Positions 52 through 37,489 of a stretch of 56,495 nt of DNA are shown one piece after another. The DNA is from Isoptericola luteus (lineage in GTDB: Bacteria > Actinomycetota > Actinomycetes > Actinomycetales > Cellulomonadaceae). The notes beneath the pieces are model-generated. The model worked only from the letters and a program-made list of their open reading frames with translations, did no database searches and was not told the origin of the DNA. Made by a program: the position numbers and the translations under genes. The stretch's first letter is position 1. Each line of letters starts with the position of its first letter. Where the stretch lies: assembly GCF_020297055.1 (NCBI RefSeq), contig NZ_JAIXCQ010000003.1:370327-426821 (forward strand), given 5' to 3'.

Positions 52-55
52 TCTT

Positions 56-87
56 CTCTATCTCAGCGAGGGGCCTCTATCTCGGCG
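56..87 (-). repeat. Two copies of the CTCTATCTCGGCG intergenic repeat at the 3' end of groL
   Basis: Copy one (56-68) reads CTCTATCTCAGCG and copy two (75-87) reads CTCTATCTCGGCG on the plus strand. The nearer copy lies 6 bp beyond the groL TGA. Read in the direction of groL the core is CGAGATAGAG, the same orientation relative to the gene as at ispF and nadB. The function is unknown. Confidence 0.75.
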
Positions 88-11178: not shown

Positions 11179-12291
11179 ATGGCAACGGTCACCTTCGACC
11201 ACGCGACGCGCATCTACCCGGGGACCGAGCGCCCGGCCGTCGACCAGCTCAACCTGCACATCGAGGACGGCGAGTTCCTCGTCCTCGTCGGCCCCTCGGG
11301 CTGTGGCAAGTCCACCTCGCTGCGCATGCTGGCGGGCCTCGAGGACGTCAACGGCGGCAGCATCTTCATCGGCGACCGCGACGTCACGGACGTCCAGCCG
11401 AAGGACCGCGACATCGCGATGGTGTTCCAGAACTACGCGCTGTACCCGCACATGTCGGTGGCCGACAACATGGGCTTCGCCCTGAAGATCGCGGGCAAGC
11501 CGAAGGCCGAGATCCGTGAGCGCGTCGAGGAGGCAGCCAAGATCCTCGACCTCACCGAGTACCTGGACCGCAAGCCGAAGGCGCTCTCCGGTGGTCAGCG
11601 TCAGCGTGTCGCCATGGGCCGCGCGATCGTGCGTCAGCCGCAGGTGTTCCTCATGGACGAGCCGCTGTCGAACCTCGACGCCAAGCTCCGTGTCCAGACG
11701 CGTACGCAGATCGCGTCGCTGCAGCGTCGTCTCGGCGTCACGACCGTCTACGTGACCCACGACCAGACCGAGGCCCTCACCATGGGCGACCGCATCGCGG
11801 TCCTCGAGGGCGGTCTGCTGCAGCAGGTCGGCACCCCGCGCGAGATGTACGACACCCCGCAGAACGTGTTCGTCGCGGGCTTCATCGGCTCCCCCGCCAT
11901 GAACCTCGGCACCTTCGAGATCAAGGACGGCGCCGCGCAGCTCGGTGCCGCGAGCGTCCCGATCGAGCGCTCGGTCATCGACGGCCTCACCGAGGCCGAC
12001 AACAACCGGATCACGGTCGGCTTCCGCCCCGAGGCGCTCGACGTCGTCGGCGCGGGCTCGCAGGGTGCCTTCGACGTGAAGGTCAACCTCGTCGAGGAGC
12101 TCGGCTCCGACGCGTTCGTCTACGGCGACCTGCAGAGCAGCACCGCCGACCTGCACTCCGGCTCCTCGGACCAGGTCATCGTGCGCATCGACCCGCGTGA
12201 GGTCCCCATGAAGGGCGACACCATCCACGTGGCGATCAAGCCGGGCAAGGCGCACCTGTTCTCGGCAGCCACGGGCAACCGCCTGAGCTGA
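11179..12291 (+). CDS. Multiple-sugar ABC transporter ATPase (MsiK/UgpC-like)
   Basis: A 370-residue ATPase of the MalK/MsiK type: Walker [10 protein letters not shown] near residue 38, signature LSGGQRQRV, Walker B VFLMDEPLSNLDA, His-loop VTHDQTEA, then a C-terminal TOBE/OB regulatory region. No permease or binding protein is adjacent, which fits the actinobacterial pattern in which one orphan MsiK energises several sugar importers. GGAGGG a few bases before the ATG at 11179 fixes the start. The upstream 16-bp palindrome may be an operator, and a strong hairpin terminator follows. Which sugars are served cannot be told here. Confidence 0.9.
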   Translation: MATVTFDHATRIYPGTERPAVDQLNLHIEDGEFLVLVGPSGCGKSTSLRMLAGLEDVNGGSIFIGDRDVTDVQPKDRDIAMVFQNYALYPHMSVADNMGFALKIAGKPKAEIRERVEEAAKILDLTEYLDRKPKALSGGQRQRVAMGRAIVRQPQVFLMDEPLSNLDAKLRVQTRTQIASLQRRLGVTTVYVTHDQTEALTMGDRIAVLEGGLLQQVGTPREMYDTPQNVFVAGFIGSPAMNLGTFEIKDGAAQLGAASVPIERSVIDGLTEADNNRITVGFRPEALDVVGAGSQGAFDVKVNLVEELGSDAFVYGDLQSSTADLHSGSSDQVIVRIDPREVPMKGDTIHVAIKPGKAHLFSAATGNRLS

Positions 12292-12309
12292 CGCTCGCAC
12301 AGCGCTCCA

Positions 12310-12356
12310 GCGACGACGGGCGGGTCCGGCACACAGCCGGGCCCGCCCGTCGTCGC
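12310..12356 (+). terminator. Strong hairpin terminator after the sugar ABC ATPase
   Basis: Two 21-nt arms (12310-12330 and 12336-12356) pair with one mismatch around an ACACA loop, 18 bp after the stop codon. It should isolate the ATPase transcript from the next gene. Confidence 0.85.
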
Positions 12357-12394
12357 ACATCTCGCGTACCCTGGCGACCGCGCCACGCCACCGC

Positions 12395-12452
12395 TGTGAG
12401 CGCGAGAACGGCCCACTCCAGGGGCCGGAAGTGGGCCATCTGCACGCTCACA
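12395..12452 (+). promoter_or_regulatory. Nested symmetric hairpin in the leader of the DUF4032 gene
   Basis: Outer arms TGTGAGCG (12395-12402) and CGCTCACA (12445-12452) are perfect. Inside, separated by 7 nt on each side, arms GGCCCACT (12410-12417) and AGTGGGCC (12430-12437) are perfect around a 12-nt loop. The structure ends 8 bases before the GGAGG ribosome site. It could be a structured RNA leader or a protein operator. Confidence 0.6.
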
Positions 12453-12469
12453 ACACTTCAGGAGGCGCC

Positions 12470-13768
12470 GTGGACCAGCTGCAGATCACGTCTGCCACCC
12501 CGAACTCCGCCTTGCTCGACCTGCCGTGGCGGCTGCCCCTGGCCGAGTGGCCGGACGAAGTGCTCGCCGCGCTCCCCCGAGGCATCTCGCGGCACGTGGT
12601 GCGGTTCGTGCGCCTCGACGGCCGGGTCCTCGCGATCAAGGAGATCAGCGAGCACGTCGCGTTCCGCGAGTTCGGGCTGCTGCGGCAGCTGAACAAGCTG
12701 GAGATCCCCGGCGTGGTGCCCGTCGGGGTCGTCACCGGACGGCGGGACGACGCCGGCGAGCCCCTCGAGGCGGCGCTCGTCACCGAGCACCTCGCGTTCT
12801 CCCTGCCGTACCGCGCCGTGTTCAGCCAGTCGCTGCGGCCGGACACGGCCACCCGCCTCATCGACGCCCTCGCCGTGCTGCTCGTGCGCCTCCACCTCGT
12901 GGGCTTCTACTGGGGCGACGTCTCGCTGTCGAACACGCTGTTCCGCCGCGACGCGCACCAGTTCGCGGCCTACCTGGTGGACGCCGAGACGGGCGCCCTG
13001 CACCGCGAGCTGTCGCCGAAGCAGCGCGAATACGACCTCGACCTGGCCCGCACCAACATCATCGGCGAGCTCATGGACCTCGCCGCGGGCGAGCTCCTCG
13101 ACGACGAGGTCGACGAGATCGGCATCGGCGACGCCCTCGTCTCCCGGTACGCCGAGCTGTGGGAGGCCCTCACCGGCGTCGAGTCGTTCGACGTCGACGA
13201 GCGGTGGCGGGTGGAAGCACGCATCGCGCGGCTCAACCAGCTCGGCTTCGACGTCGGCGAGCTGTCCATCACCACGGACATCGACGGCACGACGGTGCGC
13301 ATCCGGCCGCAGGTCGTGGACGCCGGGCACCACTCGCGCCGGCTGTTCCGGCTCACCGGCCTGGACGTCCAGGACAACCAGGCCCGGCGCCTGCTCAACG
13401 ACCTCGACTCCTACCGGGCCGCCACCGACCGGCAGGACGAGGACGAGCCGCTCGTCGCGCACGACTGGCTGCAGAACGTCTTCCACCCCACGATCCGAGC
13501 CGTCCCGCGCGACCTGCGGCGCAAGCTCGAGCCCGCCCAGCTCTACCACGAGATCCTCGACCACCGGTGGTTCATCTCCGAGCAGGCCGGACGCGACGTG
13601 CCGATGCCGGAGACCGTGGCGTCGTACGTGGACAACGTGCTGCGGCACCGGCCGGACGAGAAGGCGATCCTGGGCCTCGCGCCCGGCGAGAAGGACCCCG
13701 AGCTGGACGACGATGACGTCGCCGACGAGGGCGCACCCGAGGACGACCACTTCCACCTGTCGACCTGA
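12470..13768 (+). CDS. DUF4032 protein with kinase-like (Kdo/WaaP-type) N-terminal fold
   Basis: A 432-residue protein typical of actinobacteria. The N-terminal 200 residues resemble a lipopolysaccharide-kinase fold: VLAIKEI (candidate ATP Lys), HLVGFYWGDVSLSNTLF (candidate catalytic loop, GD in place of RD) and YLVDAETG. The DUF4032 domain fills much of the C-terminal half, ending in an acidic tail. The substrate is unknown; this organism lacks LPS, so the kinase target must be something else. GTG at 12470 is chosen because GGAGG precedes it by 4 to 5 bases. A nested hairpin precedes it and a long perfect hairpin terminator follows. Confidence 0.8.
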   Translation: MDQLQITSATPNSALLDLPWRLPLAEWPDEVLAALPRGISRHVVRFVRLDGRVLAIKEISEHVAFREFGLLRQLNKLEIPGVVPVGVVTGRRDDAGEPLEAALVTEHLAFSLPYRAVFSQSLRPDTATRLIDALAVLLVRLHLVGFYWGDVSLSNTLFRRDAHQFAAYLVDAETGALHRELSPKQREYDLDLARTNIIGELMDLAAGELLDDEVDEIGIGDALVSRYAELWEALTGVESFDVDERWRVEARIARLNQLGFDVGELSITTDIDGTTVRIRPQVVDAGHHSRRLFRLTGLDVQDNQARRLLNDLDSYRAATDRQDEDEPLVAHDWLQNVFHPTIRAVPRDLRRKLEPAQLYHEILDHRWFISEQAGRDVPMPETVASYVDNVLRHRPDEKAILGLAPGEKDPELDDDDVADEGAPEDDHFHLST

Positions 13769-13776
13769 GCCCCGCG

Positions 13777-13823
13777 AGACAGAGAACCCCGGGCCGCCTC
13801 TCGCGGCCCGGGGTTCTCTGTCT
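13777..13823. terminator. Bidirectional terminator between the DUF4032 gene and rlmB
   Basis: Perfect 21-bp arms (13777-13797 and 13803-13823) surround a CTCTC loop between two convergent genes. The outer ends hold CGAGACAGAG (13775-13784) and CTCTGTCTCG (13822-13831). These are single-base variants of the CGAGATAGAG repeat core found at other gene ends in this window. Confidence 0.9.
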
Positions 13824-13845
13824 CTGTCTCGGGATGCGGGGTGCC

Positions 13846-14838
13846 CTAGCTCGCGGACGCGCGGCGCGCCTCAGCGACCTCGTACAGGGTGATGCCCGCG
13901 GCGACGCCGGCGTTGAGGGACTCGACGGCGGAGGAGATCGGGATGGACGCGATGGCGTCGCACGTCTCGCGCACGAGCCGCGACAGCCCCTTGCCCTCGG
14001 ACCCGATGACGAGCACCAGCGGGTCGTTCGAGAACGGCAGGCTGCGCACGTCGGTGTCACCGCCCGCGTCGAGACCGACGACGAACACCCCCGACTTCTT
14101 CAGGTCGGCCAGCGTGCGCGCCAAGTTCGTCACCTTGGCCACGGGGACGCGGGCGGCCGCGCCGGCGGACACCTTCCACGCCGACGCCGTCACCGTGGCG
14201 GACCGACGCTGCGGCACCAGCACGCCGTGCGCGCCGAACGCCCCGGCGGAACGCAGCACGGCCCCGAGGTTGCGCGGGTCGGTCACGCCGTCGAGCGCGA
14301 CGATCAGGGGTGCCGTGTCCGCCTCCGCGGCGGCGTCCAGCAGGTCCTCGGCGTCCGCGTACTCGTACGGCGGCACCTGGGCGACGACGCCCTGGTGCAC
14401 GGCGCCCTCGGTGAGGGTGTCCAGCTGGCTGCGGCTGCCCTCGAGCAGCGTGACGCCCTGGACGGACGCCAGCTCGAGGATCTCGCGCGTGCGGTCGTCG
14501 TGGTCGATGCGCGTCGCCACGTGGATCGCCGTCATCGGCAGCTCGGAACGCAGCGCCTCCAGCACGGCGTTGCGCCCCGCCACGACCTCGGCGCCACCGG
14601 TGGGGCGGCGCGTCCCGCGGGCCACGCCCTTCGCCGCGCCGCGCTGGCCGTCGACAGTCCGGCGCTTCTCGGCCTCGACCTTGCGCTGGTGGGCCGGGTG
14701 GTAGGTGCGGTCCTCCGCCTTCGGCGTGGGCCCCTTACCCTCCAGCGCCTTGCGGCTGTGGCCGCCGGTGCCGACGCGGGGCCCCTTCTTGCTGCCGGTG
14801 TTGCGGACGGCGCCGGGGCGCTTCGCCTTGCCTGCCAT
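13846..14838 (-). CDS. rlmB: 23S rRNA 2'-O-methyltransferase, TrmH/RlmB family
   Basis: A 330-residue SPOUT methyltransferase. Residues 1-80 are a basic, Gly/Lys-rich extension common in actinobacterial members. The substrate-binding domain follows from about residue 83 (VAGRNAVLEAL). The knotted catalytic domain carries DGVTDPRNLGAVLRSA, IGSEGKGLS and SLNAGVAAGITLYE, the three SPOUT motifs. The usual product is 2'-O-methyl-guanosine in 23S rRNA. The ATG at 14838 has an upstream GAGAAGAG-like site. It is 59 bp downstream of cysS, a conserved neighbourhood. Confidence 0.93.
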   Translation of the reverse strand: MAGKAKRPGAVRNTGSKKGPRVGTGGHSRKALEGKGPTPKAEDRTYHPAHQRKVEAEKRRTVDGQRGAAKGVARGTRRPTGGAEVVAGRNAVLEALRSELPMTAIHVATRIDHDDRTREILELASVQGVTLLEGSRSQLDTLTEGAVHQGVVAQVPPYEYADAEDLLDAAAEADTAPLIVALDGVTDPRNLGAVLRSAGAFGAHGVLVPQRRSATVTASAWKVSAGAAARVPVAKVTNLARTLADLKKSGVFVVGLDAGGDTDVRSLPFSNDPLVLVIGSEGKGLSRLVRETCDAIASIPISSAVESLNAGVAAGITLYEVAEARRASAS

Positions 14839-14897
14839 GGTGTCTCTTCTCTCGGCCGGGAGCCGTGGGTCAGTAGTTCGCGGCCGCAGCCTGCACG

Positions 14898-16370
14898 TCA
14901 GTCGGTGGTCGGGCCGGAGCCGGTGCCGGCGTCCTGTCCGTTCGCGAGCGTCCAGCGCACGCCGTCGGAGGAGTCCTGCACGACGACGCCCGCCCGGGCG
15001 AGGCGATCGCGGATCGCGTCGCTCGTGGCCCAGTCCTTCGCGGCCCGCGCCTCGGCGCGGGCCTCCAGCTCGCAGGCGACGAGGGCGTCGAGCGCGGCCC
15101 GGGTCCTCGAGCTCCCCTGGTCCGCTCCGCCGGCCCACGTCGCGTCGCCCGGGTCGAGCCCGAGCACCCCCAGCATCCCACGCAGCGAGACCAGCTCGGC
15201 GCGGGCGGCCTCGTCGTCCTTGGCCGCGAGCGCCGAGTTGCCGGCCCGCAGGTGCTCGTGCACGACGGCGAGCGCCGCCGGCACGTTGAGGTCGTCGTCC
15301 ATCGCGGCCGCGAAGTCGGCGGGCAGCTCGGCCTTGGCGACCTCGTCGGCCGGGACCGCGCCGACACGCTCGGTGGCGCGGTCCACGAACCCGGAGAGCC
15401 GCTCCCACGTGGTGCGCGCCTCGTCGAGCGTGTCCGGCGACCACTCGAGCATCGAGCGGTACTGCACGGCCGCGAGCGCGTAGCGCACCACGGGCGCGGG
15501 CGCCTGCGACAACAGCTCGGAGACGAGCAGCCCGTTGCCCAGGGACTTGCTCATCTTCACGCCGGACTGGGTGACCCACGCGGAGTGCATCCAGCGCTGC
15601 GCGAACCCGTACCCGGCGGCGCGGGACTGCGCCTGCTCGTTCTCGTGGTGCGGGAAGCGCAGGTCCAGGCCGCCGCCATGGATGTCGAACTCGGCACCCA
15701 GGTAGCGCTGGGCCATCGCCGAGCACTCGAGGTGCCAGCCCGGGCGGCCCCGCCCGAAGGGCGTGTCCCAGGACGCCGTCACCGGCTCCGTGGGCTTCGC
15801 GGACTTCCACAGGGCGAAGTCGTGCGGGTCCCTCTTGGCCGACGCCGCGGCGTCGGGGGCGTCCGTCGGCTCCGGGTTGAGGTCCTCGAGCCGCTGACGC
15901 GTCAGCTCGCCGTACGACGACCACGAGCGCACGTCGAACCAGACGTCGCCCGGCGCCGTCGTGTACGCGTGCCCGCGCTCCACGAGCCGCTCCATGAGAC
16001 CGATCATGTCGGTCACGTGGCCGGTGGCCCGGGGCTCATAGGTGGGCGGCAGCACGCCGAGGGCGTCGTACGCGCGGGTGAACTCGCGCTCGTAGCGTGC
16101 GGCGTGCGCCCACCACTCGACCCCGGCGGCCGCCGCCTTGGCCAGGATCTTGTCCTCGATGTCGGTGACGTTGCGCACCAGCGTCACGCGCAGGCCCGAC
16201 CGCTCGAGCCAGCGGCGCAGCACGTCGAACGCGACCGCCGGCCGCAGGTGCCCCACGTGCGGTGCGGACTGGACGGTGGCCCCACACAGGTAGATCCCGA
16301 CCTCGCCCGGGTTGATAGGGACGAAGTCGCGCACGTCGCGCGTCGCGGTGTCATACAGGCGCAGGGTCAC
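14898..16370 (-). CDS. cysS: Cysteinyl-tRNA synthetase
   Basis: A 490-residue class I synthetase. The zinc/cysteine site includes the Cys in YLCGATV, HLECS and HHENE. The HIGH-type motif is PHVGH and the KMSKS motif is VKMSKSLGN. The [10 protein letters not shown] segment distinguishes CysRS from the mycothiol ligase MshC, so this is the tRNA charging enzyme. A GTG start at 16370 gives the standard MTLRLYDT beginning. It is in a run with rlmB downstream, and the deaminase-like gene lies upstream in sequence as a separate unit ending at 16421-16423, which reads toward it on the same strand. Confidence 0.97.
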
Positions 16371-16382
16371 GCCGCCAGCCTA

Positions 16383-16413
16383 CCGGCCACCCCTGCGGCC
16401 GGCCGGTGGCCGG
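16383..16413 (-). terminator. Possible hairpin between the deaminase gene and cysS
   Basis: CCGGCCAC and GTGGCCGG pair around a 15-nt GC-rich loop in the 50-bp gap. It could be a terminator of the PLP gene or an attenuator for cysS. Confidence 0.4.
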
Positions 16414-16420
16414 CCGACGG

Positions 16421-17608
16421 TCAGCCGAAGGTCTGCCCCTCGCCGCGGTAGGTGGGGACCACGTCGACGACCTCGTCCCCGCGCACCAGGTGCACGGCGT
16501 CGAAACGCTCCATGAGCTCGCCGGCCTTCGCGTGCCGCATCCAGACGCGGTCGCCGATGCGCAGCGGACGAGCCTTGGACGAGCGTCGCCGCAGCGGCGT
16601 CATCACCTCGCCCGCGCCCTCGGTGCCGGTCAGCGCCCAGCCGGACGTCGCGACGCGCGGCAGCCGGGACCGCCCGGCCGGCCCGGACGCGACGTAGCCG
16701 CCGCCGAACGCGGTAGCCCAGCCGGGGGCGGGCACGCGCACGACGTCGAGCCCGAAGAACGCCGACGGGCGCGGCCGGAACGACCGGTACCCGTCGAACA
16801 GCCCGGGCACGAACAGGCCGGAACCGGCCGTGACCTCCGTGACCGCCGGCGCGGCGGACGACGTCTCCAGCGAGCCCGTGCCGCCCGAGTTCACCAGCGC
16901 CAGCTCGCGCCCGACGGCGGCGGAGGCCGCGGCCAGCACGTCGCCGCGCCGGTCGTCGACGTCGGCCACGGACAGCCGCTTGGCGACCCGCACGGCGGGG
17001 CTCGCGTCAGGGAGCCCCGCGACCTGGGCCTCGTAGAACATCAGCCCGCGCACGCGGATCCCCGCGACCGCCTCGGCGCGGGCGGCCAGCGTCGCGACGT
17101 CGTGCGGGGTCCGCAGCGGCGAACGGCGCGTCCCGAGATGCACCTGCAACGGCCCCACGCCGAGCCGCAGGGAGGCGTCGACGTCGAGGCACACCTGTAC
17201 CGGGGTGCCGCCCCCGCCAGACTCCTCCAGGGCGCGACGCAGCGGGACCGTCTGGGCGACGTCGTCGATCATCAGCGTGATCTCGCGACGTGCGGTCTCG
17301 TCGCGCACGAGCCGGGACAGCGCGTGGACGTCCATGCTCGGGTAGCCGACCAGCACGTCGCGCACCCCCGTGCCCACCAGCCACAGGGCCTCCGCGACGG
17401 AGAAGGCCATCACGCCCGAGAAGCCGGAGTCGAGCGCGCGGCCGACGAGGGAGCGCACCCGCACCGACTTGGTCGCCAGCCGCACCGGCATGCCGCCCGC
17501 GCGGCGACGCAGGTCGGCGGCGTTCGCGTCGAAGGCGTCGAGGTCGACGACCGCGACGGGGGCGCTGAGGTGCGCCGTCGCACGCCCCAACCGGTCGGTG
17601 AGACTCAT
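16421..17608 (-). CDS. PLP fold-III amino-acid deaminase/aldolase-like protein
   Basis: A 395-residue protein with an alanine-racemase-type N-terminal barrel. Lys47 in LATKSVRV is the likely PLP lysine. HxGTRRSPLRTP, GLMFYEAQV and ELALVNSGGTGSLE follow, then a C-terminal beta domain (RIGDRVWMRHAKAGELMERF). It resembles D-threonine aldolase and D-serine deaminase type enzymes, commonly annotated amino acid deaminase/aldolase. The substrate is unknown. It is divergent, with an 85-bp gap, from a lactone oxidase gene; this shared promoter region suggests related roles but does not prove it. Confidence 0.82.
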   Translation of the reverse strand: MSLTDRLGRATAHLSAPVAVVDLDAFDANAADLRRRAGGMPVRLATKSVRVRSLVGRALDSGFSGVMAFSVAEALWLVGTGVRDVLVGYPSMDVHALSRLVRDETARREITLMIDDVAQTVPLRRALEESGGGGTPVQVCLDVDASLRLGVGPLQVHLGTRRSPLRTPHDVATLAARAEAVAGIRVRGLMFYEAQVAGLPDASPAVRVAKRLSVADVDDRRGDVLAAASAAVGRELALVNSGGTGSLETSSAAPAVTEVTAGSGLFVPGLFDGYRSFRPRPSAFFGLDVVRVPAPGWATAFGGGYVASGPAGRSRLPRVATSGWALTGTEGAGEVMTPLRRRSSKARPLRIGDRVWMRHAKAGELMERFDAVHLVRGDEVVDVVPTYRGEGQTFG

Positions 17609-17693
17609 GGCCGCACGCTACCCGACGGCGCTGCCTGCCGGGGAACGTCGCCGGCGGGGCTGGGACCCGCCCGGGCGTGGCAGAGTGTGCGCC

Positions 17694-19118
17694 GTGAGCC
17701 AGAGCATCGCTGCCAGCACACCGTCGTCGCCCGCCGCCCGCAGCAGGGAACCCCTGCGCACCTGGGGGCGCACCGTGACGTGGCAGCCGGACCGCCGCGC
17801 CACCCCGCGCGACGAGGCGGAGCTCGCCGCCCTGGTCGCCGACGCCGCGGCCGCGGGCCAGCACGTGCGCGCGATCGGCGCCGGTCACTCGTTCACACCC
17901 GCCGCCGTGACCGACGGGCTGCACCTCGGCCTCGACCACCTCTCCGGGATCGAGGCCGTGCTGCCGCAGGCGGACGGCACCGCGCTCGTCACCGTCCGCG
18001 CCGGCACGCGCCTGTACCAGCTCAACCGGCTGCTCGCCTCGCTCGGGCTCGCGATGCGCAACCTCGGCGACATCGACCGGCAGTCGATCGCGGGCGCGAT
18101 CTCCACGGGCACGCACGGGACGGGGGCCACCCTGGGCGGGCTCGCCACCCAGGTGCGGGGCGTGCGGGTCGTCGACGCCGAGGGCACCGTGCGCACCGCG
18201 ACCGCCGCCGCCGCACCGGGAAGCCCGGAGCGCGAGCTGTTCGAGGTGGCGCGCCTCGGCCTCGGCACCGTGGGCATCCTGTCCGCCGTGACCCTCGAGG
18301 TGGTGCCCGCGTTCTGGCTGCGCGCGCAGGAGGAGCCGTGGCCGCTGGACCGCGTGCTCGACGGGCTCGACGAGTACGTCGACGGCAACGACCACGCCGA
18401 GCTCTACTGGTTCCCCGGCACCCGCCGCGCGCTCACGTTGCGGAACAACCGCGCGACGCCGGACGAGGTCGCCTCGTGGACCGCCGCCCGTACCGGAGCC
18501 CTCGGGGCGCTGCGCGGGGCCGGGACCCGGGCACGCAGCCTGCTCGACGACGAGGTGCTGTCCAACGGCGCGTTCGAGGTGGTCAACCGGCTCGCGTTCG
18601 CCGCCCCGGGCCTGGTGCCGCGGCTCAACGCCGTGAGCGCCCGAGCGCTGGGCGCCCGGTCGTACGTGGCGCCCTCGCACGAGGTGTTCGTGCACCGGCG
18701 CCGGGTGCGGTTCGCAGAGATGGAGTACGCACTGCCACGCGCCGAGCTGCGGGATGTCCTCGCCGAGCTGGACGGCTGGCTGCGCCGGTCCTCCGAGCCG
18801 GTGCCGTTCCCGGTGGAGGTCCGCTTCGCCGCTGCGGACGACGTCTGGCTGTCCACCGCCCGGGGGCGCGAGACGGCCTACGTGGCGGTCCACCAGTACG
18901 CGCCCATGCCGCACCGCCGGTACTTCGACGCCGCGGAGCAGATCTTCACCGCCGTCGGCGGGCGCCCGCACTGGGGCAAGCTGCACCGTCGCACCGCCGC
19001 GGACCTGGCGCTCCACTACCCGCTGGACGACGTCGCCCGCGTGCGCGCCGCCGTCGACCCGCGCGGCACGTTCCGCAACGACTACACCGACACGGTGCTC
19101 GGCCCCACCGCGAGATAG
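17694..19118 (+). CDS. D-arabinono-1,4-lactone oxidase family FAD enzyme
   Basis: A 474-residue flavoprotein. The FAD-binding PCMH domain fills the first 200 residues; His65 in GAGHSFTP is at the position covalently linked to FAD in relatives, and SIAGAISTGTHGTG is conserved. The C-terminal ALO domain ends with the PHWGK motif and RGTFRNDYTDTVLG. Homologues oxidise sugar lactones or alditols; the substrate here is not determined. GTG at 17694 gives a normal N-terminus, while the longer frame is non-conserved. Its last Arg codon and stop (AGA TAG, 19113-19118) lie inside the first intergenic repeat copy. Confidence 0.88.
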   Translation: MSQSIAASTPSSPAARSREPLRTWGRTVTWQPDRRATPRDEAELAALVADAAAAGQHVRAIGAGHSFTPAAVTDGLHLGLDHLSGIEAVLPQADGTALVTVRAGTRLYQLNRLLASLGLAMRNLGDIDRQSIAGAISTGTHGTGATLGGLATQVRGVRVVDAEGTVRTATAAAAPGSPERELFEVARLGLGTVGILSAVTLEVVPAFWLRAQEEPWPLDRVLDGLDEYVDGNDHAELYWFPGTRRALTLRNNRATPDEVASWTAARTGALGALRGAGTRARSLLDDEVLSNGAFEVVNRLAFAAPGLVPRLNAVSARALGARSYVAPSHEVFVHRRRVRFAEMEYALPRAELRDVLAELDGWLRRSSEPVPFPVEVRFAAADDVWLSTARGRETAYVAVHQYAPMPHRRYFDAAEQIFTAVGGRPHWGKLHRRTAADLALHYPLDDVARVRAAVDPRGTFRNDYTDTVLGPTAR

Positions 19119-19320
19119 AGACCCCCTCGCGCGAGATAGAGAGCTCGCCCCGCCGAGATAGAGAGGCCCCCCGCGGTCGGCGCCGATCCAGCCCCTCGCA
19201 CGGACGGGGTCTCCATCTCGGCGGGGTGGGGTCTCCATCTCGGCGGGGCGAGCTCTCTATCTCGGCGGGGCGAGCTCTCTATCTCGGCGGGGTGGGGTCT
19301 CTATCTCGGCGGGGTGGGGA
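19111..19320. repeat. Eight-copy 22-bp repeat array between convergent genes
   Basis: Three copies of CGAGATAGAG begin at 19111, 19132 and 19154, pointing with the oxidase gene. Five copies of CTCYATCTCGGCGGGG begin at 19211, 19233, 19255, 19277 and 19299, pointing with ispF. Spacing is 21-22 bp throughout. The last 6 bases of a unit alternate between TGGGGT and CGAGCT. The two blocks are inverted about a 47-bp centre, so a long imperfect hairpin is possible. The array contains the stop codons of both flanking genes. Confidence 0.9.
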
Positions 19321-19810
19321 CGACGAGGGCAGTGGCGATGGCGGCGACGCCCTCGCCGCGGCCGGTGAGCCCGAGCCCGTCCGTGGTGGTGGCACTGAGC
19401 GAGACGGGCGCGCCCGCGGCCTCGGAGAGCACGGCCTCCGCCTCGGCGCGGCGCGTGCCGACCCTGGGGCGGTTGCCGATCACCTGGACGGCGACGTTGC
19501 CCACCTCGAACCCGGCGGCCCGGACGCGCCGCGCGGCCTCCGCCAGCAGCGCCGCCCCTGCGGCACCGGCCCACTGCGGCTCGCTGGTGCCGAAGTTGCT
19601 CCCCAGGTCGCCGATGCCCGCGGCGGAGAACAACGCGTCGGCGGCGGCGTGCGCCGCGACGTCGGCGTCGGAGTGCCCGGCGAGGCCCCGCTCCCCCGGC
19701 CAGTGCAGCCCGCCGAGCCACATCTCACGGCCGGAGCCCTCGGGAGCGAAGGCGTGCACGTCGACACCGGTCCCGGTCCGTGGCAGCGGGTACGGGGTGG
19801 GTGCGCTCAC
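19301..19810 (-). CDS. ispF: 2-C-methyl-D-erythritol 2,4-cyclodiphosphate synthase
   Basis: A 169-residue enzyme of the MEP isoprenoid pathway that cyclises the CDP-methylerythritol phosphate intermediate to MEcPP and CMP. The metal-binding DVHAF (Asp, His) and [16 protein letters not shown] (with His) motifs are intact, and [10 protein letters not shown] follows. The GTG start overlaps the ispD stop by 4 bp. The C-terminal PPR and the TAG stop are encoded by the last intergenic repeat copy, so the reading frame ends on a rare AGA codon. Confidence 0.96.
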
Positions 19811-20535
19811 GACGCCTCCTCGGCCAGGAGACCGGCGACGAGCAGGTCCCGCTCGGTGGTGATCTTCATGGCGGCGTCCGCGCCGGGGACGACGTGCACC
19901 GGCAGCCCGAGCGCCTCGACCAGGCCGGCGTCGTCGGTGGCGGCGAGGTGCTCCGCCGCCGCGCGGGCCCGCCCCTCGGCGTGCGCCCGGTCCAGGACGG
20001 CGCGCTCGAAGCCCTGGGGCGTCTGCACGACGCGCAGCAGCGACCGGTCCGGCGTCTCGACGACCTTCTCGGCGCCGCCCGCGTCGTCGGGAGCCCGTGG
20101 CGCGACGCGCTTGACGGTGTCCACGACGGGGAGGCCTGGCACCACGGCCGCGTGCCCCGCGCGCACCGCCGTGACGACGCGGCGCACGAGCTCGGGCGGC
20201 GCCAGCGGCCGGGCGGCGTCGTGCACGAGGACGACGTCATCGTCGGGCCCTGCGAGCCGCAGGCCGGCCGCCACGGACGCCTGGCGCGTCGCCCCGCCCT
20301 CGACCACGCGCGTCGGCAGACCGAGCTCCGGATCGCCTGCCAGGATCTCGCCCACGACGTCGGCCAGACCGGCCGGGCACGTCACGACGAGACGGTCGAC
20401 CATCCCGGACGCCGCGAGGCGGCGCGCGGCATGCAGCACGAGCGGGAAGCCCCCGAGGTCGACGAGCGCCTTCGGCACGTCGCGGCCGAGCCGCGTGCCG
20501 GACCCGGCGGCGGTGAGGATCGCGAGCGTCGTCAT
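19807..20535 (-). CDS. ispD: 2-C-methyl-D-erythritol 4-phosphate cytidylyltransferase
   Basis: A 242-residue nucleotidyltransferase that attaches CMP to methylerythritol phosphate. The N-terminal [18 protein letters not shown] loop binds [14 protein letters not shown] is the central motif, and VDTVKR and [11 protein letters not shown] are conserved. The ATG at 20535 gives the usual MTTLAIL start. It overlaps ispF by 4 bp, and carD lies upstream on the same strand, the standard actinobacterial carD-ispD-ispF order. Confidence 0.97.
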
Positions 20536-20616
20536 CGGGCGGTGACCTTCATCGGCGGGGACCTCCGGGCGTCGTGAGGGGCTCGGGGTGTCGTGGGGAT
20601 CCCCGGTGCACACGAG

Positions 20617-20650
20617 TGTCGCCGCGCACCAGGCTCGGTGCGCGGCGACA
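20617..20650 (-). terminator. Hairpin downstream of carD
   Basis: TGTCGCCGCGCACC and GGTGCGCGGCGACA form a perfect 14-bp stem with a 6-nt loop in the carD-ispD gap. It may terminate or attenuate carD transcripts before ispD. Confidence 0.65.
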
Positions 20651-20676
20651 GTCGTTCGTTCGGTGTGACGGGCGCG

Positions 20677-21159
20677 TCAGGAGGCGAGGACCTCGTCGAT
20701 GATCGCGCCGGCCTTCTCCTCGTCGACGCCCTCGGCGAGCGCGACCTCGGACTCGAGGATCTGGCGCGCCTTGGCCAGCATGCGCTTCTCGCCGGCGGAC
20801 AGACCACGGTCCGCGTCCCGCCGCGAGAGGTCGCGCACGACCTCGCCGACCTTGATCACGTCGCCCGATGCGAGCTTCTCGAGGTTCGCCTTGTAGCGGC
20901 GCGACCAGTTGGTGGGCTCCTCGGTGTACGGTGCGCGCAGCACCTCGAAGACCCGGTCGAGTCCCTGCTGGTCGACCACGTCGCGCACGCCGACGAGGTC
21001 GACGTTCTCTGCCGGGACCTCGATGGTCAGGTCACCCTGGGCGACCTTGAGCTTGAGGTACATCTTCTCTTCGCCACGGATCTTGCGCGTCTTGATCTCC
21101 TCGATCAGCGCGGCCCCGTGATGCGGGTAGACAACCGTCTCGCCTACTGTGAACGTCAT
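20677..21159 (-). CDS. carD: CarD family RNA polymerase-binding regulator
   Basis: A 160-residue essential-type transcription factor. The N-terminal CarD/TRCF Tudor-like domain ([20 protein letters not shown] through about residue 55) contacts the RNA polymerase beta lobe, and the helical C-terminal domain stabilises open promoter complexes, notably at rRNA promoters. Length matches mycobacterial CarD. The ATG at 21159 follows an AAAGGGG-like ribosome site. It is divergent from a lipoprotein gene and precedes ispD-ispF. Confidence 0.96.
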
Positions 21160-21187
21160 CTGCAGATGTCCCCTTTCCCAGTCGCCA

Positions 21188-21210
21188 ATCTTAGCACGTG
21201 GGACTGTCAA
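21188..21210 (-). promoter_or_regulatory. Possible carD promoter (extended -10)
   Basis: On the minus strand TGCTAAGAT (21196-21188) resembles an extended -10. A TTGACA (21210-21205) lies only 11 bp away, too close for a standard -35, so these may belong to overlapping signals. The leader would be about 22 nt. Confidence 0.4.
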
Positions 21211-21408
21211 CCCCCTGTGCCCGGACTCGCTCCGACCACCCGTGTCGACCATGTTTTCGCAGGTCACAGGCCTATGGTCTCGTCCTGGTCGGGTCGCACG
21301 CGGAGCATCGGTAGGATGTGCCGGGGCCCTCTGCGGCTCCGACCTCGACTGTCCCGTGTGCGCGCTGTGAAGCCCCCGCGCCCGGTCACGCCTCGCGAAG
21401 GAGAGCAC

Positions 21409-21885
21409 GTGTCCCGCTCCACCCGTCCCGCACGTACCGCCGTCGCCGCCGCGAGCCTCGCGGCGGGCGCCCTGCTGCTGGCCGCCTGCGCTCCCGTGAC
21501 GACGACCCTGCCGTACTCCCCCTCCGACGGCGCGCGGGTGAACCTGAACGACGCCGTCCGGGGCCTCAACCTCATGGTCGTGTCCGAGGGCGACGGCGCC
21601 CCGGGCACCGTCTACGGTGCGCTCTCCAACGGCTCTGCCGAGGTCGTCGACTTCGTCCTGACGGCGGAGGGCGCCGCGCCGCTGTCCGTGTCCGTCCCCG
21701 CCGGCGGGACCGTCTACCTGGGCGAGGACGAGGCCGTCGACTCCACGATCGACGCCGTCGACGCCATGGCGGGCGAGAGCGTGGAGTCGACGCTGTCCGG
21801 CGCGGGCATCGTGGAGTCGTTCTCCATGCAGGTCTTCGACGGGACGCTGCCCGAGTACGCCACGGCTGGTCCCACCGGGTCCTGA
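21409..21885 (+). CDS. Small lipoprotein of unknown function
   Basis: A 158-residue secreted lipoprotein. The signal peptide has an Arg-rich n-region, an Ala/Leu h-region and lipobox LLAAC near residue 25. The mature part is beta-rich, with an [17 protein letters not shown] start and [13 protein letters not shown], reminiscent of the fold of periplasmic copper-chaperone-like proteins, but the Met/His copper motif is not evident. AAGGAG 6-11 bases before GTG 21409 decides the start. A possible -10 (TAGGAT) lies at 21312-21317. Function unknown. Confidence 0.82.
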
Positions 21886-21951
21886 CGCCGGCGGGCCGGG
21901 TCCCGAATCCCCGACGCCCGCGCGCACCACGACCGCGCCGAGCGCGTACCA

Positions 21952-21988
21952 CGAGAGGACGGACCGCCCTCGGCGGTCCGTCCTCTCG
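21952..21988. terminator. Bidirectional terminator between the lipoprotein gene and pstB
   Basis: Perfect 17-bp arms (21952-21968 and 21972-21988) with a 3-nt CTC loop lie between two converging genes. Confidence 0.85.
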
Positions 21989-22016
21989 CACTCCCGCTGG
22001 GCTCCCCAGCCCGACG

Positions 22017-22796
22017 TCACCCGAAGCGGCCGGAGACGTAGTCCTCCGTCGACTTCTGGGCGGGCGAGGAGAAGATCGTCGAGGTCTCGTCCATCTCGAT
22101 GAGGCGCCCGGGCTTGCCCGTGCCTGCGATGTTGAAGAACGCCGTCCGGTCGCTCACCCGCGCCGCCTGCTGCATGTTGTGCGTGACGATGACGATCGTG
22201 TAGTCCTGCTTGAGCTCCCCGATGAGGTCCTCGATGGCGAGGGTGGAAATCGGGTCGAGCGCCGAGCAGGGCTCGTCCATGAGCAGGACCTGCGGCTTGA
22301 CCGCGATCGCGCGGGCGATGCAGAGCCGCTGCTGCTGGCCGCCCGAGAGCCCGGAGCCCGGCTTGTCGAGCCGGTCCTTGACCTCGTTCCACAGGTTCGC
22401 CCCGCGCAGCGAGCCCTCCACCAGCTCCTCGGCGTCCGACCGGCTGATCCGCCGGTTGTTGAGCTTGACCCCGGCGAGCACGTTGTCGCGGATCGACATC
22501 GTGGGGAACGGGTTCGGCCGCTGGAACACCATGCCGACGTTCCGGCGCACCGCGACCGGGTCGACGTCGGGGCCGTACAGGTCGACGCCCTCCATCTCGA
22601 CCGTGCCCTCGACGGCCGCGCCGGGGATCACCTCGTGCATCCGGTTGAGGGTGCGCAGGAACGTCGACTTGCCGCAGCCGGACGGGCCGATGAACGCCGT
22701 CACCGACTGCGGGTCGATCGTCATCGTCACGTCCTGCACGGCGAGGAAGTCGCCGTAGTAGATGTTGAGGTCCTTCACGTCGATGCGCTGAGCCAT
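22017..22796 (-). CDS. pstB: Phosphate ABC transporter ATPase
   Basis: A 259-residue ATPase energising high-affinity phosphate import. Walker A is GPSGCGKST (near residue 37), Q-loop [10 protein letters not shown], signature LSGGQQQRL, Walker [14 protein letters not shown], His loop IVTHNMQQA, all intact. The PNPFP insertion and RTLNRMHEV are typical of PstB. It is the last gene of the pstSCAB run; 46 bp separate it from pstA. Confidence 0.98.
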
Positions 22797-22842
22797 CTTT
22801 GTTCCTTCGTTCGAGCTGCGGGTGGCGAGGCGGGTCTGCGCG

Positions 22843-23802
22843 TCAGCGCAGCTTCGGGGAGAACCAGCGGTTCACGAGCCGGCCGGCCAGGTTCAGGACG
22901 AGCACGATCACGATGAGCACGAGCGCCGCGCCCCACCCGTTCTGGATCGCGATGTCAGGGACGCAGGTGGCTGACTCGCCGCCGGGGCAGGTCGCCAGGC
23001 CCTGGCTGTACTGCCGGTAGGCGAAGACCGGCAGCGTCATCATCCGGCCCTCGAACGGGTCGAAGTTGATCGAGTCGGTGACGCCCACGGTGACGAGCAG
23101 CGGCGCCGTCTCGCCGATCACGCGGGCGACGGCGAGCAGGATGCCCGTCGTCAGGCCCGCCACCGACGTGCGCAGCACGACCTTGACGATCGTCAGCCAC
23201 TTGGGCACGCCCAGGGCGTACGACGCCTCGCGCAGCTCGTTGGGCACGAGCTTGAGCATCTCCTCGCAGGAGCGCACCACGACCGGGATCATGAGCACCG
23301 AGAGCGCCACCGCGCCGATGAGCCCGATGCGCACCCCCGGCCCGAGGATCAGCGTGAACAGCGCGACGGCGAACAGGCCGGCGACGATCGACGGGATGCC
23401 CGTCATGACGTCGACGAAGAACGTCACCGCCCGCGCCAGCGCGCCCCTGCCGTACTCCACGAGGTAGATGGCGGTCAGCAGGCCGATCGGCACGGAGATC
23501 ACGGTGGCGAGCGCCGTGATGACCAGCGTGCCGGCGATGGCGTGGTAGATGCCGCCGCTCGGGTCGCCGCCGAAGATGTTGCGCATGGACAACGTGAGGA
23601 AGTCCAGGCTGATGCGCCCGAAGCCGCTGCTCAGCACCGTCCACACCAGCGAGACCAGGGGCACCATGGCGACGGCGAAGGCACCCCAGATCAGGATCCG
23701 CATCGTGCGGTCGACCCGCCGGCGCCTCGGGTCCGCGGCGGTCAGCAGGGCCCGGGTCAGCTCGGTGGCGTCGGCCGAGGCGGCTGCGGTGGTCGTGGTC
23801 AT
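22843..23802 (-). CDS. pstA: Phosphate ABC transporter permease A
   Basis: A 319-residue inner-membrane permease with six predicted membrane helices. The EAA cytoplasmic loop is seen as [22 protein letters not shown] and a [10 protein letters not shown] segment is characteristic of PstA/PstC. Its start ATG shares one base with the pstC stop (TGATG), so the two are translationally coupled. An extracytoplasmic insertion near the C-terminus (CPGGESATC) has two Cys that could form a disulfide. Confidence 0.96.
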
Positions 23803-24794
23803 CAGTTGGCCCCCGAGAATTCCTTGCGCCGCGCCACGATCGCGCGCGCGCCCATGTTGACGGCCAGCGTGATGACGAACAGCACGAGGCCGGTGGCCAC
23901 CAGCGTGTTCACCGCGAGTCCGCTGGCCTCCGGGAAGTCGGCGGCGATGTACGCGGCGATCGTCTGGTGCTGGGCGCTGGTCAGGATCTTGAACGAGTAG
24001 AGGAACCCGGGCGAGAGGATCATCAGCACGGCCATCGTCTCGCCGAGCGCGCGGCCCAGGCCGAGCATCGCCGCCGAGATGACGCCCGAGCGCCCGAACG
24101 GCAGCACCGCGGTCCGCACGACCTCCCAGCGGGTCGCCCCGAGGGCGAGCGCCGCCTCCTCGTGGAGCTTCGGCGTCTGGAGGAACACCTCGCGGGACAC
24201 CGCGGTGATGATCGGCAGGATCATCACCGCGAGCACCACCGAGACCGTGGCGAGCACGCGCGACGTCGGCGAGACGGTCCCTGCGAACAGCGGGAACCAG
24301 CCGAGCACCTGGCCCAGCCACTCCCACACCGGCAGGACCGCCGGGCCTAGCACGAAGATGCCCCACAGGCCGTAGATGACCGAGGGGACCGCGGCCAGCA
24401 GGTCCACCAGGTAGCCGAGCACCTGGGCCAGCTTCGGGGGCGCGTAGTGCGAGATGAACAGCGCGATCCCCATCGCGACCGGCGTGGCCAGGGCGAGGGC
24501 GAGCGCCGCGGCGAGCAGCGTGCCGAACACCAGCGGGCCGACGTAGGCCAGCAGCGACGTGTCGGCCGGGTAGCGCGGCACGGAGGCGGCGAGGTCGTCC
24601 TCGCTCGCCGTCAGCGCCGGCCACGCCTGCACCAGCAAGAACAGCGCGACGGCCGCGAGCACCGCCAGCATCAGTACGCCGGACCCGACGGCGATCCATC
24701 GGAACGCACGGTTGAAGCCCCGGTCGGTCGTCCGACGACGGGTGCGTCGTCGCGCCGGAGCCTGGACAGGCGGCCCGCTGGCGGTGGTGGTCAC
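23802..24794 (-). CDS. pstC: Phosphate ABC transporter permease C
   Basis: A 330-residue permease partner of PstA. A basic N-terminal cytoplasmic segment is followed by six hydrophobic helices. AVPSVIYGLWGIFVLGP and the EAA loop HEEAALALGATRWEVVRTAVL are conserved. GTG at 24794 is chosen because GAGGAGC lies a few bases upstream; the longer frame is Pro/Ser-rich and non-conserved. Between it and pstS is a 129-bp gap. Confidence 0.95.
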   Translation of the reverse strand: MTTTASGPPVQAPARRRTRRRTTDRGFNRAFRWIAVGSGVLMLAVLAAVALFLLVQAWPALTASEDDLAASVPRYPADTSLLAYVGPLVFGTLLAAALALALATPVAMGIALFISHYAPPKLAQVLGYLVDLLAAVPSVIYGLWGIFVLGPAVLPVWEWLGQVLGWFPLFAGTVSPTSRVLATVSVVLAVMILPIITAVSREVFLQTPKLHEEAALALGATRWEVVRTAVLPFGRSGVISAAMLGLGRALGETMAVLMILSPGFLYSFKILTSAQHQTIAAYIAADFPEASGLAVNTLVATGLVLFVITLAVNMGARAIVARRKEFSGAN

Positions 24795-24923
24795 TCGTGC
24801 TCCTCGTTGCTCGTCACGTAGGTGGTGCCGGGCCGGGCCCGACGGCGGCGCCGGTGACCGGCCGCTGCCCGTGGGCAGCGCGTCGGCCACCGGCGCCATG
24901 CCCGGTACTGTCCGGTGCTCCGG

Positions 24924-26036
24924 TCAGCCGGCGGCGATCGCCTCGATGGAGGGCATCACCGCGTCGCGGATGTCCGCGGACAGCGGGGCCGAGCCCGCGG
25001 CGTCGGCGGCGGCCTGCTGGCCCTCCTCGCTGGCGAGGTAGGTCATGAAGCCCTTGACCAGCTCGGCCGTGGCCTCGTCGGCGTAGGTACCGCAGGCGAG
25101 GGAGTAGGAGACCAGCACGATCGGGTACGTGCCGGCGATGTCGCGCTGCAGGTCGATCGCGTAGACGCCCTCGGAGGTGCCCTCGACGCGCGGCGACTGG
25201 GCCACGACCTCGGCAGCGGCCTCGGCGCTGTACGGCACGAAGTCGTCACCCACACCCACGGCGACCGTGCCCAGGCCGCTGACCTGGGAGGCGTCGGCGT
25301 AGGTGATGGCGCCCTCGCCGGACTGCGCGGCGCCGATGACGCCGGACGTACCCTGCGCGGACTCCTGGCCCTTGATCGGCCACACGCCCTCGGGCTCGTG
25401 CGGCCACTCGTCGGGAGCCACCGCGGACAGGTACTCCTGGAAGTTCTCGGTGGTGCCCGAGTCGTCCGAGCGGTGCACCACGGTGATGGCCGTCTGGGGC
25501 AGGTCGACGTCCGGGTTGTCGGCCGCGATCGCCTTGTCGTCCCAGGAGGTGATCGTGCCGTTGAAGATGTCGGCGATCACCTGGGGCTTGAGGTTGAGGG
25601 AGTCGACGCCCGGCAGGTTGAAGGCCACGGCGATCGGGCTCACGTAGCCGGGGAACTCGATGATGCCGCCCGGGCCGCACTGGGCCTCGGCCGCGGCCAG
25701 GTCCTCCTCCTCGAGCGCGGCGTCGGAACCGGCGAAGGCGTAGGTGCCGTCACCGAAGCCGGTGCGACCGCCGCCCGAACCGACCGGGTCGTAGTTGACG
25801 GTGACGTCGGGGTTCGCGCTCTGGAAGCCGGCACGCCAGGCCTCCATGGCGGACTCCTGCGACGAGGCTCCGCCACCGTTGAGCTCGCCGGACAGGGTCG
25901 ACCCGTCGGCCGCGTCCGTCGAGCCGGTGCCCTCGGCGCCGGCGGGCTCCGGGTCGGAACCGCACGCGGCGAGCGAGAGAGCGAGAGCGCCGACCGCGAC
26001 GGCAGATCCAGCACGGGTGAATCGGCTGAGCTTCAC
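24924..26036 (-). CDS. pstS: Phosphate-binding lipoprotein
   Basis: A 370-residue extracytoplasmic receptor. The signal peptide ends with lipobox SLAAC (Cys25). Phosphate-contact segments typical of PstS appear: GGGASSQ, FAGSDAALE, HRSDDSGTTENFQEYL and TSGVIGAAQ. The start is ambiguous: GTG 26036 (used here, conserved MKLSR-like start, GGAA upstream) or ATG 26048, four residues longer. A PHO-box-like repeat lies about 100 bp upstream, so induction under phosphate limitation by the adjacent RegX3/PhoP-type regulator is expected. Confidence 0.95.
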   Translation of the reverse strand: MKLSRFTRAGSAVAVGALALSLAACGSDPEPAGAEGTGSTDAADGSTLSGELNGGGASSQESAMEAWRAGFQSANPDVTVNYDPVGSGGGRTGFGDGTYAFAGSDAALEEEDLAAAEAQCGPGGIIEFPGYVSPIAVAFNLPGVDSLNLKPQVIADIFNGTITSWDDKAIAADNPDVDLPQTAITVVHRSDDSGTTENFQEYLSAVAPDEWPHEPEGVWPIKGQESAQGTSGVIGAAQSGEGAITYADASQVSGLGTVAVGVGDDFVPYSAEAAAEVVAQSPRVEGTSEGVYAIDLQRDIAGTYPIVLVSYSLACGTYADEATAELVKGFMTYLASEEGQQAAADAAGSAPLSADIRDAVMPSIEAIAAG

Positions 26037-26131
26037 GTGTCGTTCCATCCTGTTCACACGTTGGGTAACCCGGCGGCTGCCGGCTTCGTCTCGCACGCTA
26101 GGAGCCGAAGGTGGCCCGGCACCCAGGAGCA

Positions 26132-26149
26132 GGTGAACGACGAGTGAAC
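26132..26149 (-). promoter_or_regulatory. PHO box upstream of pstS
   Basis: On the minus strand GTTCACT-CGTC-GTTCACC forms two direct repeats with the 11-bp periodicity of actinobacterial PHO boxes (GTTCACC-type). It sits 96-113 bp before the pstS start. Confidence 0.8.
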
Positions 26150-26192
26150 AGTGGTCGGCGGCTGGTCACCTGGTGTCACGGTCAGATCACGA

Positions 26193-26235
26193 GAGCGTCC
26201 CTCGACCGGCCCGTCGGGCCGGTCGAGGGACGCTC
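26193..26235 (-). terminator. Strong terminator between regX3 and pstS
   Basis: Perfect 20-bp arms (26193-26212, 26216-26235) with a 3-nt loop lie 31 bp after the regX3 stop. It separates the two-component genes from the pst operon. Confidence 0.88.
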
Positions 26236-26266
26236 CCGTGCGAGTGCCGCCGTGAGACGGGGCGGG

Positions 26267-28275: not shown

Positions 28276-28346
28276 ACCTCAGGGTAGGCGGACGCCGGCG
28301 CCCGAACCGACGGGAACCCGAACTGCTCAGCGACCCGTCGCCGACT

Positions 28347-28375
28347 GTTCATCTGCGGGGTCCACGGAGTTCACC
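28347..28375 (+). promoter_or_regulatory. PHO-box-like repeats upstream of phoU
   Basis: GTTCATC (28347-28353) and GTTCACC (28369-28375) are direct repeats 22 bp apart, twice the 11-bp PHO-box period. Two further GTCCA half-matches at about 11-bp steps follow. It lies in the senX3-phoU divergent region and could serve either gene. Confidence 0.55.
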
Positions 28376-29110: not shown

Positions 29111-29114
29111 GCTC

Positions 29115-29975: not shown

Positions 29976-30051
29976 CGAGATAGAGACGCCCCCGCGCCGA
30001 GATAGAGAGGCTTCCCCAGCGAGATAGAGAGGCGCCCGCGCCGAGAGAGAC
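29976..30051 (+). repeat. Four 22-bp intergenic repeats (three good, one degenerate)
   Basis: CGAGATAGAG begins at 29976, 29998 and 30020, each 22 bp apart, and a degenerate CGAGAGAGAC follows at 30042. They lie between the gpmA terminator and the start of the broken DUF4037 gene. Unlike the other loci, they point against both neighbouring genes. Confidence 0.85.
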
Positions 30052-37442: not shown

Positions 37443-37489
37443 CGCGAGACGGGAGCCTCTCTATCTCGGCGGGAGGGCTCTCTATCTCG
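37443..37489 (-). repeat. Intergenic repeat copies between nadC and nadB
   Basis: CTCTATCTCG begins at 37459 and 37480 (21 bp apart), pointing with nadB; a degenerate CGAGACGGGA (37444) points with nadC. The nadB stop TAG (37484-37482) and its preceding AGA codon are part of the second copy. Confidence 0.85.

What the first reader, a model, noticed from the sequence alone, without database searches (positions are those of the whole stretch)
19111..19320. Array of 22-bp repeats filling a convergent intergenic gap
Eight copies in two opposed blocks (three then five) share the core CGAGATAGAG / CTCYATCTCGGCGGGG at 21-22 bp steps, two helical turns. It is not a CRISPR: units are contiguous with no spacers and there is no cas gene. 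The strict phasing looks like a protein-binding array or a self-folding RNA at the ends of two genes. I know of no described element of this kind, though I cannot search.
Basis: partly seen in the sequence, partly recalled or inferred. Interest (0 to 1): 0.8.

Follow-up and report, generated by a model that had tools for sequence, protein, structure and literature searches.

The report
Species-dialect repeat arrays at gene ends
At the tail ends of genes, mostly where two genes run towards each other, these actinobacteria carry mirror-image arrays of a short DNA word whose spelling is uniform within a species but changes between species, which suggests an undescribed, cell-read signal for ending genes.

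Summary
At 19111-19308, three forward then five reverse units of CGAGATAGAGA, 21-22 bp apart, fill the gap between two convergent genes (an ALO-type oxidoreductase and ispF); both stop codons lie inside the outermost units. The motif occurs 135 times in the 3.97-Mb genome (reversed control 0), in clusters at gene 3' ends, mostly in convergent gaps; none of the clusters examined in this genome and its nearest relatives lay in a divergent gap or inside a gene. Relatives carry arrays of the same build (period 19-22 bp, mirror-image blocks, stop codon often inside the first unit) but with a species-specific spelling of a shared core CGAG-N-Y-AG: CGAGATAGAGA, CGAGGTAGGCA, CGAGGTAGCGC, CGAGTCAGCGC. 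Several orthologous gene pairs carry different spellings in different species. In dialect A, spacers of the two arms usually mirror each other, even where species differ. I read this as a bidirectional gene-end hairpin (termination or 3'-end protection) whose stem carries phased sites for an unidentified trans-acting factor; termination and factor are inferred. It resembles REP/BIME elements but lacks their unit, and RAYT transposases are absent from nearly all carriers searched. My literature searches found no description. New variant of a known kind, possibly more.

The parts
19111..19164 (+). left block: three sense units CGAGATAGAGA (19111, 19132, 19154)
   Evidence: first unit contains the TAG stop of the left gene
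19165..19209 (.). centre between the blocks, no unit; lies inside the predicted long hairpin
19210..19308 (-). right block: five units on the - strand (19210 and 19232 with CGAGATGGAGA; 19254, 19276, 19298 exact)
   Evidence: last unit contains the TAG stop of ispF
17775..19118 (+). left flanking gene, D-arabinono-1,4-lactone oxidase family (ALO + FAD_binding_4), ends ...GPTAR* inside the first unit
19301..19810 (-). right flanking gene, ispF (Pfam YgbB), ends ...TPPR* inside the last unit
29976..30030 (+). second array of the window, three sense units, followed by a GC inverted repeat at 30055-30087 (read by eye)
37458..37489 (-). third array, two units, outer one holding the stop of the leftward gene that ends at 37482
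13775..13831 (.). variant single-unit hairpin CGAGACAGAGA...TCTCTGTCTCTGTCTCG in a convergent gap; its stem end has a T-rich tail that the terminator scan reports at 13799-13813
55..84 (-). two one-mismatch units just after a leftward gene ending at 94 (groEL by eye)

Best explanation
It is a bidirectional gene-end element. Each flanking gene ends in one to several sense-oriented units that start at or just after its stop codon; in convergent pairs the two blocks meet as mirror images and form a long GC-rich hairpin that serves both transcripts as a terminator or 3'-end barrier against running into the opposite gene. The unit core CGAG-N-Y-AG plus a species-specific suffix, repeated about every two helical turns, is read by a trans-acting factor (most likely a DNA- or RNA-binding protein) that holds one spelling uniform within a genome and lets it shift between species. 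Shown: location, block order, period, dialects, positional sharing, mirrored arms in dialect A. Inferred: termination, the factor, and its co-evolution with the motif.
For: Gene-end location: of 29 own-genome clusters with both neighbours called, 22 convergent, 7 tandem, 0 divergent, 0 inside genes; over six dialect-A genomes 72 convergent, 19 tandem, 0 divergent, 0 inside among 91 distinct clusters; 16/13/0/0 of 29 in dialect C; 7/6/0/0 of 13 in an unselected 400-kb stretch of G001 whose intergenic DNA is 34% divergent. Block order: + then - in 93 of 93 clusters holding both strands. Stop codon in the first unit (distance -7): 58 of 187 gene ends, 51 of 167 after removing repeats, with 1 deeper; 7 of 40 in dialect C; 8 of 18 in G001. 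Period: almost only 21-22 in A and 20 (or 40, 60) in C; 20 in 47 of 47 in G001. Different dialects at the same gene pair; array-bearing convergent pairs of dialect-C genomes match both flanks of a dialect-A array in 5 of 15 against 1 of 81 pairs without array, p 2.7e-4. Inner spacers of the two arms match 82% against 45% shuffled, 0 of 2000 shuffles (44 arrays); in five comparable orthologous pairs 21 spacer positions changed in both arms (19 keep the pair) against 7 in one arm; icd hairpin of three genomes, 4 pairs with change on both sides, none on one side only, 5 of 500 shuffles as high. RNA fold z -10.8 (any such inverted repeat would score).
Against: No transcript-end data. No U-tract at the window array. 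The 27 compact elements tested in g21 show no spacer pairing beyond chance (p 0.73), though their variable core bases agree slightly (p 0.003), so a perfect stem is not general; several of the 10 orthologous pairs set aside also have unmatched inner spacers (for example G000 L161 and L184, 4D3 L063). Mirrored changes can arise by quasipalindrome repair without selection (recalled). Lone blocks are sense-only at about 13 independent tandem loci but antisense-only at 4, two of these with a weak partner: a bias, not a law. Two of 22 compact elements in other genera fell in divergent gaps, by a gene caller not trained on them. Three of 18 genomes of the genus have 0-1 hits of the core pattern, so it is not essential. 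The array at the ispF pair itself is not shared.
Confidence: 0.45

Rival explanations
1. A REP/BIME-like repeat family spread by copying or gene conversion that survives at convergent gene ends because these are safe havens; any terminator effect is incidental.
For: Repeats lie downstream of genes as REPs do. In G361 five of the six copies read are very similar over their 67 bp. Other hairpin families, such as GTTGTGGGCRTGA, occupy the same kind of gap in relatives.
Against: RAYT/Y1_Tnp in 0 of 16 and 2 of 27 genomes searched. In dialect A the core is fixed while spacers differ between loci, unlike copied elements. Positions are shared between species and dialects more than by chance. No match of the window array in plasmid or phage collections.
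Confidence: 0.25
2. A purely DNA-level protein array: phased sites bound by a polar roadblock, nucleoid or topology factor (compare TTF-I Sal boxes or gyrase at BIMEs, recalled); the hairpin is irrelevant.
For: Period near two helical turns in the genomes measured; compact 2+2 form with steps 19, 21-22, 19 in four genera of three families; no spacer pairing in 27 g21 elements.
Against: Arms in dialect A are mirrored far above chance. The step between the two blocks varies from 13 to 73 in dialect A.
Confidence: 0.15
3. Neutral expansion: slippage and quasipalindrome repair enlarge terminator hairpins; no recognised motif.
For: Tandem units, mirrored arms and fast spacer turnover.
Against: One 11-mer shared by unlinked loci, a fixed period across unrelated arrays, and a core shared by many genera do not follow from local slippage.
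Confidence: 0.1
4. DNA-uptake-type signal: a dialect motif kept by transformation bias, parked at gene ends as inverted pairs like Neisseria DUS.
For: Dialects with a shared core and inverted pairs at terminators are described for DUS (passages of PMC3630211).
Against: 135 copies in a few dozen clusters against 2245-5918 per genome for the DUS dialects quoted in those passages; tandem arrays and the stop-codon overlap are unexplained.
Confidence: 0.05

Closest known systems
REP/BIME elements (GTAG-REPs)
   Same: many copies per genome, intergenic, downstream of genes, convergent gaps favoured, inverted arrangement; several dialects end the core in GTAG
   Different: unit is not itself a small palindrome with GTAG at its foot; direct 19-22 bp tandem units; stop codon inside the unit; RAYT absent from nearly all carriers searched; spelling differs by species at the same site
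DNA uptake sequences of Neisseriaceae
   Same: short motif, species dialects with a constant core, inverted pairs at terminators
   Different: far fewer copies, clustered in tandem arrays; no uptake evidence
Bidirectional intrinsic terminators between convergent genes (recalled)
   Same: GC hairpin shared by two transcripts
   Different: no U-tract at the window array; stem carries a genome-wide fixed motif with a period
Mycobacterial MIRU repeats (recalled)
   Same: intergenic tandem repeats whose ends overlap stop codons of neighbours
   Different: unit length, dyad arrangement and convergent-gap preference differ; not compared here
Sal-box / TTF-I terminator arrays (recalled)
   Same: oriented repeated sites downstream of a gene
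   Different: eukaryotic Pol I system; no homologue sought

Membership tests
REP/BIME | many intergenic copies downstream of genes | tested here: met
   135 exact copies; none of the clusters examined in divergent gaps or genes
REP/BIME | small palindromic unit tagged by GTAG (or CGTC) at one end | tested here: not met
   unit CGAGATAGAGA+spacer is asymmetric; palindromy is between blocks
REP/BIME | associated RAYT (Y1 transposase) | tested here: not met
   PF01797 in 0 of 16 and 2 of 27 genomes, two genomes in both searches
Intrinsic terminator | stable hairpin just after the stop codon | tested here: met
   (predicted folds)
Intrinsic terminator | U-tract after the stem | tested here: not met
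   none at the array in the scan of 12000-31000; the variant hairpin at 13775-13831 does have a T-rich tail
Intrinsic terminator | transcripts end there | not testable with these tools
   needs Term-seq
DNA uptake sequence | hundreds to thousands of copies | tested here: not met
   135 copies
DNA uptake sequence | promotes uptake by a receptor | not testable with these tools
   experiment needed
CRISPR | repeats separated by unique spacers of constant size acquired from mobile DNA | tested here: not met
   10-11 nt between motifs, mirrored blocks; no phage or plasmid match of the array
CRISPR | cas genes nearby | not tested
   no cas search was run
Transposon with multi-repeat ends (Tn7-like MITE) | transposase between the repeat blocks | tested here: inconclusive
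   blocks mostly lie within about 75 bp of each other; at the pepN-malQ site a 333-aa gene lies between them in several species, no Pfam or NCBIfam match; target duplications not tested

The most novel reading that the evidence does not exclude
A previously undescribed gene-end code of Actinobacteria: a phased, directional motif with a constant core and species-specific suffix, read by a dedicated co-evolving factor that ends transcription from both sides, its first unit often also supplying the stop codon.
Probability: 0.33. Interest if true: 0.87.

Novelty: new variant of a known kind. Interest (0 to 1): 0.72.

Why it matters
High-GC actinobacteria often lack U-tract terminators (recalled), and how convergent genes are kept apart there is poorly known.

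Tried and rejected
Rfam: no match at gathering score for six loci; two weak miRNA-family matches below their gathering scores on the array look like chance hairpin matches. RAYT mobilisation: not supported for nearly all carriers searched. Tn7-like ends: suggested by + and - blocks about 1.1 kb apart; the gene between has no family match and sits at one shared place (pepN-malQ), so not pursued. I had thought of DUF559 from memory; no call supports that. Stops in all three frames as purpose: units of 20 or 22 nt would do it, but Puerhibacterium and I. variabilis JZ7 use 21, so rejected. Strict sense-only rule: weakened, see the Against line; six of the sense-only cases are one orthologous site (pepN-malQ), counted once, and 37458, called tandem by my gene caller, follows the end of a rightward gene at 37435 (by eye) and was dropped. 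Compensatory pairing as a general rule: fails in g21. Rows set aside: 10 of 54 arrays and 10 of 15 orthologous pairs, for unequal spacer lengths. One search lists 129 clusters, 115 distinct. One search listed 100 of 135 places, so single copies on the last contigs may be missing from the clusters. My gene caller is home-made and missed some genes.

Literature: searches showed no paper on this element among the listed results; the library holds open papers only, and (the letters CGAGGTAG) hit 626 papers of which 10 were listed. PMC3630211, PMC8355165, PMC3733652 and PMC12306157 were seen as passages (PMC3733652 also abstract and outline); all others only as search listings.

Names pepN, malQ, rsmI, pncA, icd and groEL are by eye from translations, not from a call.

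Full report
What is there. Between the stop codon of an ALO-family oxidoreductase (17775-19118, +) and that of ispF (19301-19810, -) lie three units of CGAGATAGAGA on the + strand and five on the - strand, spaced 21-22 bp. Both stop codons are TAG inside the outermost units (C GAGA TAG AGA). Folding gives one long hairpin, -172 kcal/mol, z -10.8, as any such inverted repeat would.

Not a local oddity. The 11-mer occurs 135 times in the 3.97-Mb genome, 73 + and 62 -, against 0 for the reversed pattern (100 of the 135 places are listed); 81 tandem pairs 20-23 bp apart, again 0 in control. In the loci I fetched for these places there are 35 distinct clusters; 29 have both neighbours called: 22 convergent, 7 tandem, none divergent, none inside a gene; the other 6 lie at contig ends. 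Over six dialect-A genomes 129 clusters, 115 distinct, gave among the 91 distinct ones with both neighbours 72 convergent, 19 tandem, none divergent or intragenic. Dialect C: 16 convergent and 13 tandem of 29. An unselected 400-kb stretch of G001 agrees: 7 convergent, 6 tandem of 13. In 93 of 93 clusters holding both strands the + units come first, so each reads the same from both sides. Against this, 2 of 22 compact elements in other genera fell in divergent gaps, by a caller not trained on those genomes.

The stop codon. Measured from stop codon to unit, the commonest distance is -7, the TAG inside the first unit: 58 of 187 gene ends in dialect A (51 of 167 without repeats), with only one array reaching deeper; 7 of 40 in dialect C, none deeper; 8 of 18 in G001. 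If an array overlapped the gene in a random frame, two of three would run deeper.

Dialects. Besides the own genome, the exact 11-mer is abundant (94-124 copies) in 4 of 97 relatives, with 8 copies in G004 and 0-3 in the rest. Others carry other spellings: CGAGGTAGGCA in G016 (166 copies) and G017 (215), 0-8 in the other 96 genomes; CGAGGTAGCGC in 75 of 76 array cores of the G001 sample; CGAGTCAGCGC in G012. Reading the rsmI and icd sites in 28 and 19 relatives shows several of these, and further spellings, at the same place; other species there have a plain GC hairpin or nothing of the kind. A pattern for the core alone (CGAGDYAG twice, 19-23 bp apart) scores at least 10 hits in 56 of 221 genomes of the family, including 15 of 18 in the genus and 17 of 17 in g8; in these 56 the reversed control is 0-9 except G255 (77), and one genome without hits has 11 control hits. 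G003, with one hit, still shows a degenerate array at icd. Outside the family 3 of 361 genomes of the order reach 10 hits. In four genera of three families I saw a compact form with steps 19, 21-22, 19.

Shared positions. Array-bearing convergent pairs in dialect-C genomes match both flanks of a dialect-A array in 5 of 15, against 1 of 81 pairs without array (Fisher p 2.7e-4); in the G010 sample 4 of 5 against 0 of 45 (the G016 loci were chosen for their arrays). So either the place is old and the spelling changed, or the same places are hit again; the data do not decide. At the ispF pair itself none of 30 relatives showed this array; four carry a different hairpin family there.

Arms. In 44 of 54 dialect-A arrays with comparable inner spacers the two arms match at 82% against 45% shuffled (0 of 2000 shuffles). 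In five orthologous pairs of equal spacer length (10 of 15 set aside, some with unmatched arms), 21 spacer positions changed in both arms, 19 keeping the pair, against 7 in one arm. The icd hairpin in three genomes has 4 pairs changed on both sides and none on one side only, including one inside the core. In 27 compact g21 elements spacers show no such link (p 0.73), the variable core bases a slight one (p 0.003). Selection for a stem and quasipalindrome repair both predict the dialect-A pattern.

Direction. In tandem contexts, blocks of one orientation only are sense-oriented at about 13 independent loci and antisense at 4, two of which have a weak partner at two mismatches (six sense cases are one orthologous site, counted once, and 37458 was dropped as really convergent). 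Several sense-only blocks lie between the stop codon and a predicted GC hairpin, for example L183, L078, L191, L369, L376, L382.

How it most likely works. See Best explanation. The tight period and constant core argue for a reader; the mirrored arms argue for a hairpin in at least one lineage.

Known kinds. Closest are REP/BIME elements, which also lie downstream of and between convergent genes (passages and abstract of PMC3733652), but the unit differs and RAYT genes are missing from 16 of 16 and 25 of 27 genomes searched. The dialect behaviour resembles DUS (passages of PMC3630211) without its numbers. No description appeared in the searches listed under Tried and rejected.

Names.

Counts were recounted: 4 not 5 relatives rich in the 11-mer, 0-8 background copies of CGAGGTAGGCA, G003 not array-free, distinct-cluster numbers added. 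None of these moved the odds.

Noticed in passing
relatives G001, G002, G008, G011, G013, G016, G017: A second, unrelated family of gene-end hairpins, GTTGTGGGCRTGA...TCAYGCCCACAAC, start to start 47-60 nt apart, 71 matches in G017 and 0 in the dialect-A genomes.
   Followed up: partly
L157 2244-3242 (pepN-malQ site): A 333-aa gene without Pfam or NCBIfam match lies between a + block and a - block at the same place in several species; in G004 (L191) it appears split into two frames.
   Followed up: partly
G000:C1:37181-52577 and G000:C3:64625-79960: Two arrays with matching flanks recur about 15.3 kb apart on two contigs: a large duplication or an assembly artefact.
   Followed up: no
ends of G000 contigs C6, C7, C8, C9, C15, C26; also L168, L171: Contigs break, or turn into runs of G/C, inside arrays, as if the hairpins defeat sequencing or assembly; array counts in draft genomes may be too low.
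   Followed up: no
window 21885-22017 and 30055-30087: Other gene-end gaps carry GC hairpins with a shared core (GGACGGACCGC, GGGCACGGTCCGC), similar to hairpins at the centre of several arrays.
   Followed up: no
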